A stretch of DNA of 64,000 nt from Methylobacterium haplocladii (lineage in GTDB: Bacteria; Pseudomonadota; Alphaproteobacteria; Rhizobiales; Beijerinckiaceae), in assembly GCF_007992175.1 (NCBI RefSeq), contig NZ_BJZT01000014.1, forward strand, positions 62,001 to 126,000, given 5' to 3'. Each line of letters starts with the position of its first letter. Position 1 is the first letter of the stretch. The notes beneath the pieces were generated by a model. It was not told where the DNA came from and searched no databases. It saw nothing but the letters and a program-made list of their open reading frames with translations. Positions 59,457 through 62,813 of this stretch are shown piece by piece. A program made the position numbers and the translations under genes.

Positions 59457-59663
59457 ATGGCCGACGACACCGACCCGACCGTCGAAGCGACCCGCGTCGA
59501 TCCCAAGCTCCTCGAATTGCTGGTCTGTCCGCTGACCAAAGAATCGCTCGACTACGATGCCACGCGCCAGGAGCTGATCAGCCGATCCGCCAAGCTCGCC
59601 TATCCGATCCGCGACGGCATCCCGATCATGCTGCCGGAAGAGGCGCGTGCGCTGACGGATTGA
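59457..59663 (+). CDS. Trm112-like protein (UPF0434)
   Basis: 68 residues. [26 protein letters not shown] and [14 protein letters not shown] are the family marks. Only one Cys remains of the zinc-ribbon type used by Trm112, so metal binding is doubtful. Bacterial members are annotated as YcaR-like. Start ATG 59457. Confidence 0.9.
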
Positions 59664-59710: not shown

Positions 59711-60538
59711 TCACGCCGCCGCGTTCTGGTCCGTTTCCGGAAGCGCAGTCCTCCCGATGTACCGCCGTCCGAAGATCGACCGTGCGAAGTCGTCGAGCGG
59801 CAGCATGATCGGCAAAACATATTCCTTGAAGGTCGGCTCGAAGATGGGCTGCCCGACGAAGCACAGGCCGATCCCGAGGAGGAAGCGCACGATGGCCGGT
59901 AGCGGCAGCGTCTCGAACGCACCCTCCGCCGCGAGGCGGCGCTGCTCCTCGGTGTAAAACGGCCGACAGGGGATGTGGTCCGGTTCGGGCAGCGTCGAGC
60001 GCAGGCAGGGTTTTGAGGCGGTGCGGCCCTTCCGGCCGAGGATCGCCAGGACGATGTCGGTGTCCAGGCGCAGGTCGGTCTCGGTCAGGCTGAATCCGAT
60101 CCAGTGGGTGATGCCGCCTCGGCGGGAGGCCTCGTAGGCCGCCTTGTAGAGCTTGCCGATGGCCGGCGAGCCCCGGTGCGCTTTCAGGATCGCGGCTCGG
60201 CCGAGCTCCGCCACATGAGCGCGGGGCGGCATGTCGTCGATCCGGCATTGCAGCTCGAGGGGCAGGCCGAGCGGCAGCTTCTGAACGCGGGCGACGGCCG
60301 GGTTCGGCCGCAGCAGCCTGATCGTGCCGATGGCTTCGTCGCCCTTGTAGCAGACGAAGTTGTCGGTGGTGTCGAGCACGTCGAAACCGTTGATCTCGCG
60401 GAGCGCCGGCAGCAGGCCGGGCTCCAACTGCATGGCCTCCGAAAACACCTGCCAGCGCACCTGGGCGGCAGCGTCGAGTTCGGTCACCGTGCATGCCTTG
60501 ACGACGCGGTAACCGGTGATGGGGTCGCTCGTCGACAT
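59711..60538 (-). CDS. LuxI/FeeM-like acyl-transferring GNAT enzyme
   Basis: 275 residues. N-terminal GNAT fold with the LuxI/FeeM residue set: Arg28-x-x-Val-Phe32, Glu48, Asp53 and Asp56 (FDVLD), Arg74 (TIRLL) and the pair Glu111-x-x-Arg114 (ELGRAAI). C-terminal half is predicted alpha-helical with LPLPAIVRFLLGIGLCFVG and FARSIFG. LuxI makes acyl-homoserine lactones, FeeM N-acyl amino acids; which of these, if either, is made here cannot be told. No luxR is near. A haem-oxygenase-like enzyme is upstream. Confidence 0.7.
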   Translation of the reverse strand: MSTSDPITGYRVVKACTVTELDAAAQVRWQVFSEAMQLEPGLLPALREINGFDVLDTTDNFVCYKGDEAIGTIRLLRPNPAVARVQKLPLGLPLELQCRIDDMPPRAHVAELGRAAILKAHRGSPAIGKLYKAAYEASRRGGITHWIGFSLTETDLRLDTDIVLAILGRKGRTASKPCLRSTLPEPDHIPCRPFYTEEQRRLAAEGAFETLPLPAIVRFLLGIGLCFVGQPIFEPTFKEYVLPIMLPLDDFARSIFGRRYIGRTALPETDQNAAA

Positions 60539-60596
60539 CGCCCGGGTGCCTCGTGATCGGTGCTGGAGGTGGTGGCGGTTCGATCAGGTCGGGAAC

Positions 60597-60720
60597 GCCG
60601 GTCCCCGCGCGCGGGGAGGGGTCGGAGGGTGGGGGCGGCTCAGGATCGGGCGTCGCGGTGCCGTCTGCCCACCCCCACCGACAGCTCCTCCCGGCAAGGA
60701 GGAGAGGAGCGACAGCTCCG
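60597..60720. repeat. GC-rich imperfect inverted repeat (REP-like)
   Basis: GGGGAGGGG-TCGGAGGGTGGGGG is followed, about 60 bases on, by CCCACCCCCACCGACAGCTCCTCCC, so the two arms can pair, with a small CTCCTCCC-GGC-AAGGAGGAG hairpin inside the second arm. It fills most of the 209 bases between the GNAT and haem-oxygenase-like genes. Similar G-rich elements recur in alphaproteobacterial intergenic regions. Confidence 0.5.
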
Positions 60721-60747
60721 ACCGTCTCCTCGTCCGGGAGGCCGTGG

Positions 60748-61458
60748 CTAATGCGCCGTCGAGCGCGTTCGTGCGACCTCGTCGAGCATGCCGAGATAGG
60801 CGCCGCGGGTGGCCGCCGCCGTCATGACGATGGCGTCGCACTCGGTGGCGTCTTCGAGGCCGGCGAGGATGCGCTCGAGGTCGTCGACATGGCCGATATC
60901 CGCTTCGGCGTGCAGGTCGAGGAAGGTGACGGCGTCCGCGATCTTCGGAATGCTGCTCGTCGCCACCAGCGCTTTCGCCACCTTGCCGGCGCGTTCCACC
61001 GCGAGCCCTTCGAGGATGTAGGCGCTCCCGAGGAAGGCCGCCGGATGACGTCCGTTCGTCGCCGCCGTGATCCAGCTGTTGTAGGCGGTAATCCACTCGC
61101 CCGGCGGGTGCGCCGCGAGCGTCGCCTCGGGGTCCAGGCCCAGCGCGCGCAGGTCGTCGTCGACGAGGATATCGTGGCCGGCCTCCTCGTCGGCCTTCTG
61201 GAAGAACAGTTCGGCCAGCTCGGGATGCTCGCCGAGCTCCTTGAGACGACGACCGGCCGCTTCGAGGCAGGGCGCCGTCAGCGCGACGTAGTGCCGGGTC
61301 TGGACGAGGAAATCGACGTAGAGGGCCTTGTCGGCCGAACCGTCCTTGAAGGCCTTGATCGCCGGTTCCTGATCGAGGCCGGCGACGAGCCTGTCGAGCT
61401 CGTTGCGCAGGTCGGCGACGACCCCGCGCGGTGACAGATCGCCTGCAGCTTCACCCAT
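60748..61458 (-). CDS. Haem-oxygenase-like diiron/iron redox enzyme
   Basis: 236 residues, all-helical. Likely iron ligands: Glu92-x-x-His95 (DEEAGH), Glu150 (YILEGLAVE) and Asp187-x-x-His190 (ADIGH), the order seen in the HDO family (UndA, BesC, SznF central domain) and PqqC relatives. LYVDFLVQTRHYVALTAPCL is a typical first block. Reaction unknown; family members oxidise fatty acids or amino acids using O2. Same strand and just upstream of the GNAT synthase. Confidence 0.75.
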   Translation of the reverse strand: MGEAAGDLSPRGVVADLRNELDRLVAGLDQEPAIKAFKDGSADKALYVDFLVQTRHYVALTAPCLEAAGRRLKELGEHPELAELFFQKADEEAGHDILVDDDLRALGLDPEATLAAHPPGEWITAYNSWITAATNGRHPAAFLGSAYILEGLAVERAGKVAKALVATSSIPKIADAVTFLDLHAEADIGHVDDLERILAGLEDATECDAIVMTAAATRGAYLGMLDEVARTRSTAH

Positions 61459-61671
61459 TCCAACTCTCCTGGTTCTTGCGTCGGACAGAGCCTCCGAGGG
61501 GCAGGGCGCCCCTGCCGCTGCCGGCGCATCCGAACGAACCCGAGGCTAGGATGCGCACGGTGCGTGCGTCCAGGAAAATCTACCTGAGATGCGTGTATTT
61601 CTGCCTTTCAGTCGAATAAATGTAACCTAGAGTTATTTATGCCATGCCATTCCGGCAGCTCGACGCACACG

Positions 61672-61699
61672 AAAAAGGGCGCCGGTCTGCCCGGCGCCC
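61672..61699 (-). terminator. Rho-independent terminator after the Tim44-domain gene
   Basis: On the minus strand GGGCGCCGG-GCAGA-CCGGCGCCC is followed by TTTTT; 9-bp perfect stem 32 bases after the stop. Confidence 0.9.
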
Positions 61700-61730
61700 T
61701 CCGATCGATTCGTACGTCCGAAAGCTGCGC

Positions 61731-62687
61731 TCAGCGGCCCTGCTGGATCGCGGACAGCTGCCAGGCCCCGCCGCGCTCGCGGGCGAAGGTCCAGAACTCC
61801 TTGGCCTCGGACGGACCGTTCTCGACGACACGCTGCGAGTTCCGTTCGATGGTGACGTCCTTCAGGGCGAACCGCATGGCAACGGTGGCGTACTCTACGT
61901 TGCCCTCGCGCCAAGCCTCCGACAGGTCCCCCTGCAGGAGCTTCACGTCGGAGATCCGGTTCACGACGCCGCGCTGGGCGTTGGCCCGCAGCTCCTCTTC
62001 GAAATAACCGACCATCTCCGGCGTCGCGACCCGGCGCAGGGCGCCGAGATCCTCGCGGCCATAGGCGGTCTGGACCTCGCCGAGGTTGCGCTCGAAGGCC
62101 TCGTAGTCTGCCGGCTGCACGGTGACCGGCTGCGCCGCCTGCGGAGGGGCGGAGCCGCCACCGCCATAGGGAGCCGCACCACCCACGCCCGCGCCATTGA
62201 GGTGCGAGCGGGCGTAGGGCGCGTTACCGGCCATGGCCGGCTGGCCGCCGCCCTGGCGGCGACGGAACAATCGCACCGCCAGCATCACCAGACCGACCAG
62301 CAAACCGACCTGCAGGAGCAGGCCGAGGAACGAGGCGATGCCGCCGAGGCCCCCGAAGAAGCCGCCGCCGACGAGCGCGCCGAGAAGCCCCGCGCCCAAC
62401 AGACCCGCGAAGAAGCCGCCGCCGAAGCGACGGCCGGGGGCTGCCTGCATGCCGGGATTGGTCATGCCCGGGCTCGGCGCCGTCTGCGAGCGCTGGATCG
62501 GCGCCGTGGCGCCGGGAGACGTATTGGTGCTCGGCGGCGGGCTGTAGGTGCGCGAGCCGCGCGAACCAAAGCTGCCGCCACCGCCGCCGGGACGGGCCTC
62601 GACGACCGGCGCGGCGGTGACCGCCAGTGCTGCGGCAAGGGCGAGCATGGTCGCCATGCGCCTGCGACCGGTGGTGGGGGTTGCCAT
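61731..62687 (-). CDS. Tim44-domain membrane protein
   Basis: 318 residues from ATG 62687 (AGAGGA before it). Signal-like helix (MLALAAALAVTAAPVVEA), a Gly/Pro-rich low-complexity region, two Gly-rich membrane helices (FFAGLLGAGLLGALVGGGFFGG and IASFLGLLLQVGLLVGLVML), and a C-terminal Tim44/MBA1-like domain (DLGALRRVATPEMVGYFEEEL, WTFARERGGAWQLSAIQQ). Bacterial members sit in the inner membrane; role unknown, perhaps assembly of membrane proteins. Confidence 0.88.
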   Translation of the reverse strand: MATPTTGRRRMATMLALAAALAVTAAPVVEARPGGGGGSFGSRGSRTYSPPPSTNTSPGATAPIQRSQTAPSPGMTNPGMQAAPGRRFGGGFFAGLLGAGLLGALVGGGFFGGLGGIASFLGLLLQVGLLVGLVMLAVRLFRRRQGGGQPAMAGNAPYARSHLNGAGVGGAAPYGGGGSAPPQAAQPVTVQPADYEAFERNLGEVQTAYGREDLGALRRVATPEMVGYFEEELRANAQRGVVNRISDVKLLQGDLSEAWREGNVEYATVAMRFALKDVTIERNSQRVVENGPSEAKEFWTFARERGGAWQLSAIQQGR

Positions 62688-62813
62688 GGAGATCCTCTGA
62701 AAAAGTTCGAGTCGGGCGGAATTCGCCCACTCTTGATATGGAGACGTTCTCAATCGAGTTTTAGTCCCGACTGATTTCATGCCGACCGCCGATCGCGACC
62801 GGATCGGTCGATT

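What the first reader, a model, noticed from the sequence alone, without database searches (positions are those of the whole stretch)
59711..61458. Acyl-synthase-like GNAT enzyme next to a haem-oxygenase-like iron enzyme
The GNAT protein keeps the LuxI/FeeM catalytic set (Arg28, Phe32, Asp53, Asp56, Arg74, Glu111-x-x-Arg114) in a 275-residue protein whose second half is not like LuxI. The upstream same-strand gene has HDO iron ligands (Glu92, His95, Glu150, Asp187, His190). A pair making and then oxidising an acylated small molecule, possibly a signal, would fit and I know of no described system of this form. No LuxR lies in the window. That the two genes act together is inference from order and strand.
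Basis: partly seen in the sequence, partly recalled or inferred. Interest (0 to 1): 0.7.

Follow-up and report, generated by a model that had tools for sequence, protein, structure and literature searches.

The report
Two-gene acyltransferase and iron-oxidase operon
A small group of Methylobacterium species carries an always-together pair of genes, one for an enzyme related to those that attach fatty acids to amino acids and one for an oxygen-using iron enzyme, which probably make an unknown modified fatty amide; there is no sign that it is a quorum-sensing system.

Summary
Both genes are real, and the listed residues are at the stated positions. The pair occurs in 4 of 111 Methylobacterium genomes, always together and in the same place between tim44 and trm112. 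Five species without it have those neighbours side by side, so the two genes behave as one ~2 kb cassette. A tim44 terminator-like hairpin and one conserved 20-bp block lie upstream of the oxidase gene; the gap between the two genes is poorly conserved. This fits one transcript.

The GNAT is not a LuxI protein. It is a very divergent sister of OlsB (ornithine N-acyltransferase), and its 'unlike-LuxI' second half is OlsB-like. One Asp of the usual pair is Asn50. The other protein has the complete 3-His/3-carboxylate HDO ligand set (E92, H95, E150, H183, D187, H190).

Own genome and two of the three relatives lack LuxI and LuxR-type (Autoind_bind) proteins, which argues against classical quorum sensing. 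Relatives of the HDO sit overwhelmingly in thermostable-hemolysin/AMP-ligase/HDO/SDR operons (57 of 65 regions); two other genomes have an HDO beside a FeeM-family synthase.

Most likely: N-acylation of an amine coupled to HDO oxidation. Substrate and product unknown; chemistry inferred. No description of this pair was found in the papers searched.

The parts
60748..61458 (-). Haem-oxygenase-like dimetal oxidase (HDO), 236 aa, first gene of the cassette; ligands E92, H95, E150, H183, D187, H190
   Evidence: PF14518 5.3e-16; PDB 3dde 3.7e-13; Foldseek to 3dde, CADD and UndA; six ligands invariant or nearly so in 28 relatives; 84-87% identical in three relatives
59711..60538 (-). GNAT N-acyltransferase of the OlsB/FeeM/AHL-synthase group, 275 aa, sister lineage of OlsB, second gene of the cassette
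   Evidence: Acetyltransf_5 1.5e-7; profile match to OlsB over residues 8-252, E 3e-15; tree places it with OlsB 95/85 on a long stem; 80-83% identical in three relatives
60539..60747 (-). HDO-GNAT intergenic spacer, poorly conserved, no conserved promoter-like block
   Evidence: Alignment A3: the non-coding part has at most about 7-8 of 20 invariant columns per window
61567..61586 (-). Conserved upstream block CAGGTAG-N-TTTT-N-CTGGACG, probable promoter/-35 region or operator of the pair
   Evidence: 17 of 20 columns invariant in four species in an otherwise diverged region
61543..61548 (-). TAGCCT, possible -10 element 18 nt after TGGACG (inferred)
   Evidence: Conserved in four species; not found by the sigma-70 consensus scan
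61671..61700 (-). Terminator-like hairpin followed by T5 behind tim44, separating it from the cassette
   Evidence: Fold -26.6 kcal/mol, z -4.2; hairpin region seen in all four species; the pattern scan did not list it
61731..62780 (-). Tim44-like flanking gene, conserved left boundary of the cassette site, not part of it
   Evidence: PF04280 9e-24; synteny
59457..59663 (+). Trm112-like flanking gene, convergent, right boundary of the cassette site, not part of it
   Evidence: PF03966 5e-16; synteny

Best explanation
The two genes are a two-enzyme metabolic operon acquired or kept as one cassette by a small Methylobacterium clade. The GNAT (OlsB sister lineage) joins a fatty acyl group, probably from acyl-ACP or acyl-CoA, to the amino group of a small acceptor (amino acid or polyamine). 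The HDO uses a dimetal site and O2 to oxidise either the N-acyl product or its amine/acyl precursor (hydroxylation, desaturation, decarboxylation or N-oxygenation). The product is an oxidised acyl amide or aminolipid-like metabolite. Shown: gene identity at family level, complete HDO ligand set, purifying selection, co-occurrence, single insertion site, one conserved upstream element. Inferred: co-transcription, N-acylation, order of steps, substrates, product.
For: Co-occurrence and synteny: close homologues of GNAT and HDO are found in the same genomes and never apart. Empty site: five species have tim44 directly facing trm112-lon. One conserved block upstream of HDO, none between the genes, and a hairpin closing off tim44. 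GNAT in the OlsB group by profile and tree, with R28, F32, D53, R74, E111, R114 matching invariant OlsB positions. HDO 3H/3C set complete, as the HDO review defines it (PMC13108848). Parallel pairings: FeeM next to HDO in L119 (same strand) and L118 (convergent), RpfF-like crotonase next to HDO, and HDO in fixed operons with an AMP ligase. Precedent for N-acyl-amino-acid synthase plus O2-dependent oxidase in one cluster: TrzAS/TyzACB oxazolones (PMC12856293), which use a flavin oxidase instead.
Against: N50 replaces an Asp conserved in OlsB/FeeM. The GNAT branch is very long, so its substrate class could have changed. GNAT structure model too poor to test (pLDDT 41). The HDO-GNAT gap is about 160-210 bp, longer than in a tightly coupled operon. 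Of 40 regions around FeeM-model hits in the phylum sample, none held an HDO, so GNAT-HDO pairing is not a general rule. No other pathway gene or exporter was identified among the flanking genes checked.
Confidence: 0.5

Rival explanations
1. The pair makes a variant membrane aminolipid: the GNAT is a neofunctionalised OlsB making a lyso-aminolipid, and the HDO hydroxylates or desaturates it, with ester acylation by an OlsA-type enzyme elsewhere.
For: Nearest family is OlsB, including the C-terminal half; the genome also has a normal OlsB-type protein (strong Acetyltransf_5 match on contig 8), so the second copy is free to diverge.
Against: No OlsA/PlsC gene was identified beside the pair; known ornithine-lipid hydroxylases (OlsC, OlsD, OlsE) are not HDOs as far as I recall; sequence scores to OlsB models are far below their cut-offs.
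Confidence: 0.25
2. It is a signal-making (quorum-sensing-like) system: the GNAT makes an acylated signal that the HDO modifies.
For: The GNAT lies in the wider group that includes AHL synthases and FeeM; a neighbouring PAS-histidine kinase exists; two replicons pair an HDO with an RpfF (DSF synthase)-like crotonase.
Against: No LuxI or Autoind_bind LuxR in own genome, M. brachythecii or M. gnaphalii; the GNAT groups with OlsB, not AHL synthases; the PAS kinase and tim44 are conserved in species without the pair.
Confidence: 0.08
3. The two proteins are unrelated functionally: a two-gene insertion in which neighbours happen to be retained.
For: Narrow distribution in one clade; a long gap between the genes; HDO relatives elsewhere have other partners.
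Against: Both retained in all four species at substantial synonymous divergence (dS 0.39-0.83 between pairs) under purifying selection, never apart; single conserved upstream element; independent FeeM-HDO adjacencies.
Confidence: 0.17

Closest known systems
OlsB, L-ornithine N(alpha)-acyltransferase (NF052555/NF052554; Acetyltransf_5)
   Same: Near whole-length profile match, catalytic positions R28, F32, D53, R74, E111-x-x-R114, sister position in the tree
   Different: About 24-28% identity, 23.7 bits against a 320-bit cut-off, N50 for Asp, paired with an HDO, long separate branch
FeeM N-acyl amino acid synthases (PF21926)
   Same: GNAT core; an HDO lies beside a FeeM gene in L119 and L118
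   Different: Window protein scores 19.2 bits against a cut-off of 27; not in the FeeM group of the tree
HDOs of thermostable-hemolysin/AMP-ligase/HDO/SDR operons
   Same: Closest relatives of the window HDO by sequence (about 30%), same six ligands
   Different: Four-gene operon with AMP ligase and SDR; the window unit has neither and has an OlsB-like GNAT instead
TrzAS/TyzACB/OxzAB oxazolone pathways (PMC12856293)
   Same: N-acyltransferase followed by an O2-dependent oxidase in one small cluster
   Different: They use a flavin oxidase and a ThiF-like cyclase; neither was found beside the window pair
UndA, SznF, CADD and other characterised HDOs
   Same: Fold (Foldseek) and 3H/3C ligand set (UndA, CADD; SznF has 3H/4C)
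   Different: No sequence-level match to a characterised HDO in the PDB search (only 3dde); reaction unknown

Membership tests
HDO superfamily (Haem_oxygenas_2, PF14518) | Pfam model over curated cut-off | tested here: met
   59.4 bits against 28.9
HDO superfamily (Haem_oxygenas_2, PF14518) | 3-His/3-carboxylate primary ligand set | tested here: met
   E92, H95, E150, H183, D187, H190 aligned with invariant or near-invariant columns in 28 sequences; motif as in PMC13108848
HDO superfamily (Haem_oxygenas_2, PF14518) | Haem-oxygenase-like helical fold | tested here: met
   Foldseek best hit 3dde, TM 0.72, also CADD and UndA; the model has low confidence, pLDDT 57
HDO superfamily (Haem_oxygenas_2, PF14518) | Dimetal cofactor and O2-dependent oxidation | not testable with these tools
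   Needs purified protein
LuxI AHL synthase (PF00765) | Match to Autoind_synth model | tested here: not met
   No PF00765 match to the protein at E up to 1 and none in the own genome
LuxI AHL synthase (PF00765) | Cognate LuxR with Autoind_bind domain | tested here: not met
   None in own genome, G033, G025
FeeM N-acyl amino acid synthase (PF21926) | Model over curated cut-off | tested here: not met
   19.2 bits against 27; no own-genome match at 1e-5
OlsB (NF052555/NF052554) | Equivalog model over cut-off | tested here: not met
   23.7 of 320 and 12.5 of 350 bits
OlsB (NF052555/NF052554) | Near full-length homology and catalytic residues | tested here: met
   231 aligned columns, E 3e-15; residues except N50
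Acetyltransf_5 (PF13444) | Model over curated cut-off | tested here: met
   32.4 bits against 22.4
PEP-CTERM/exosortase acyltransferase (TIGR03694) | Model over curated cut-off | tested here: not met
   30.6 bits against 111.95

The most novel reading that the evidence does not exclude
A minimal two-gene pathway in which a new lineage of long-chain N-acyltransferase and an HDO make a new class of oxidised N-acyl amide (for example N-hydroxylated, dehydro or decarboxylated acyl amino acid). It would be one of several independent pairings of acyl-group enzymes with HDOs across Pseudomonadota.
Probability: 0.25. Interest if true: 0.7.

Novelty: new variant of a known kind. Interest (0 to 1): 0.42.

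Why it matters
Of more than 10,000 predicted HDOs only about a dozen had been functionally validated at the time of the 2026 review (PMC13108848), and their substrates are hard to guess from sequence. A two-gene cassette with an N-acyltransferase narrows the substrate guess to an acyl amide or its amine, and is small enough to express whole in a laboratory strain. It also gives an OlsB-sister acyltransferase lineage that may act outside ornithine-lipid synthesis.

Tried and rejected
AlphaFold of the GNAT from four sequences gave pLDDT 41 and was not used for fold search. GNAT profile against PDB: no hit. GNAT in plasmids: none. Widening the GNAT search to 385 Alphaproteobacteria and 398 Pseudomonadota found only OlsB-level relatives. 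General FeeM-HDO association: rejected, 0 of 40 FeeM-hit regions. T_hemolysin as a homologue of OlsB/FeeM GNATs: inconclusive, best profile probability 31% against under 1% for decoys. OlsB replacement: rejected, the genome has its own strong Acetyltransf_5/OlsB-type match. The first neighbour scan failed on a gap character and was redone. A repeat element in the HDO-GNAT gap was looked for in the window and not found elsewhere. Papers with both a GNAT-type acyl synthase and an HDO: none describing this pair.

Full report
OBSERVATION. The two ORFs are as described: 59711-60538 (-) 275 aa and 60748-61458 (-) 236 aa, and every listed residue is there. Pfam gives Acetyltransf_5 (32.4 bits, cut-off 22.4) for the first and Haem_oxygenas_2 (59.4 bits, cut-off 28.9) for the second; FeeM and OlsB models match the GNAT only below their cut-offs. 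The window lies in a 4.63-Mb genome whose nearest named relatives are Methylobacterium brachythecii, M. gnaphalii and Methylobacterium sp. C25.

CONSERVATION OF THE PAIR. In 111 genomes of the genus only four carry the GNAT, and among the relatives searched with each protein the close homologues of both occur in the same genomes. In the four species the order pas-kinase, tim44, HDO, GNAT, convergent trm112, lon, thioredoxin is the same. In five species lacking the pair (L225, L226, L228, L229, L231) tim44 is followed directly by trm112 and lon. The two genes therefore came or went as one cassette. Both are under purifying selection (dN/dS 0.12-0.18 for the GNAT and 0.07-0.16 for the HDO; the neighbouring lon gene 0.03-0.10). 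GC content does not stand out.

TRANSCRIPTION. Behind tim44 is a terminator-like hairpin followed by T5 (61671-61700, -26.6 kcal/mol, z -4.2); the pattern scan did not list it. Between it and HDO lies a 20-bp block CAGGTAG-N-TTTT-N-CTGGACG (61567-61586) with 17 invariant columns in four species, followed after 18 nt by TAGCCT. The consensus scan finds no sigma-70 promoter, so calling it a promoter is inference from conservation. The 209-bp HDO-GNAT gap has no such block and is poorly conserved. The simplest reading is one promoter in front of HDO and a shared transcript; this is inferred.

THE GNAT. Profile-profile comparison aligns it with 49 OlsB-type proteins over residues 8-252 (E 3e-15) and with 39 FeeM-type proteins over 120 columns (E 1.3e-6). 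The C-terminal segment PAIVRFLLGIGL...FEPTFKEYVLPIMLP aligns with OlsB PPLIKGYLRVGA...HQFGTTDVFVVLP, which explains the 'second half not like LuxI'. A maximum-likelihood tree puts the four window-type proteins next to OlsB (95/85) on a stem of 3.1 changes per site, apart from AHL synthases and FeeM; long-branch error is possible. In the joint alignment R28, F32, D53, R74, E111, R114 match invariant OlsB positions, but the first Asp of the pair is N50. No closer relative was found in 385 Alphaproteobacteria or 398 Pseudomonadota. The genome separately holds a strong Acetyltransf_5 protein of the OlsB type. No LuxI and no Autoind_bind LuxR is found in own genome, G033 or G025; G527 has one of each elsewhere.

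THE HDO. The six ligands of the 3H/3C set are E92, H95, E150, H183, D187, H190, invariant or nearly so in 28 relatives; the review PMC13108848 gives 3H/3C as the majority HDO set. Best PDB sequence match is 3dde, of unknown function. The low-confidence model (pLDDT 57) finds 3dde, TenA, CADD and UndA by fold.

CONTEXT OF HDO RELATIVES. Of 398 Pseudomonadota genomes 83 have an HDO match to the window profile at 1e-6. Of 65 regions long enough to judge (three of them from the earlier search of relatives), 57 hold T_hemolysin + AMP ligase + HDO (54 also SDR), three HDO + SDR, two HDO + FeeM, one HDO + RpfF-like crotonase and two others (families checked). In L119 FeeM and HDO are on one strand and, from the likely Met start of the HDO, about 15 bp apart; in L118 they converge. 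Conversely 0 of 40 regions around FeeM-model hits had an HDO (the two known pairs were not among these 40). So HDO next to an acyl-amino-acid synthase recurs but is rare.

MECHANISM. Most likely the GNAT N-acylates an amine and the HDO oxidises the product or a precursor. A described parallel is TrzAS/TyzACB, where an amino-acid N-acyltransferase is followed by an O2-dependent flavin oxidase and a cyclase (PMC12856293). Shown here: families, ligands, selection, co-occurrence, single site. Inferred: transcript, reaction, order, substrates. A quorum signal is not supported. An aminolipid is the strongest alternative.

NOVELTY. Both enzyme kinds are known. The combination of an OlsB-sister GNAT with an HDO as a two-gene cassette was not found in the paper library, which lacks most subscription journals. 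I rate it a new variant of a known kind.

Noticed in passing
L100-L106, L108-L111, L113, L252-L291 and others (Pseudomonadota): Proteins annotated 'thermostable hemolysin' (PF12261) that lie beside these HDOs sit in a fixed four-gene operon with an AMP ligase, the HDO and an SDR (54 of 65 regions), which suggests a biosynthetic pathway rather than a hemolysin; the ligase and HDO are sometimes one fused protein (L023, L104, L109). No description found in the papers searched.
   Followed up: partly
L156:6890-8565 (Methylibium plasmid RPME01) and L121:5578-7280: An HDO gene directly followed by an RpfF (DSF synthase)-like crotonase in two replicons (NF006452 over cut-off; RpfF model 172-183 bits, below its cut-off).
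   Followed up: partly
L119:6523-7787: FeeM-family N-acyl amino acid synthase (103.5 bits, over cut-off) immediately upstream of an HDO on the same strand: an independent GNAT-HDO pair.
   Followed up: partly
L118:6192-7582: HDO and FeeM-family gene adjacent but convergent.
   Followed up: no
G527 contig 4, loci L220 and L221: One carrier of the cassette (G527, the same placement as Methylobacterium sp. C25) has a LuxI/LuxR pair elsewhere in its genome, unlike the other three carriers.
   Followed up: no
window:60640-60760: G+C-rich self-complementary sequence in the HDO-GNAT gap of the own genome, not shared with the other three species.
   Followed up: partly
window:55384-56208: Membrane protein with a Ceramidase-family (PF05875) match.
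   Followed up: no
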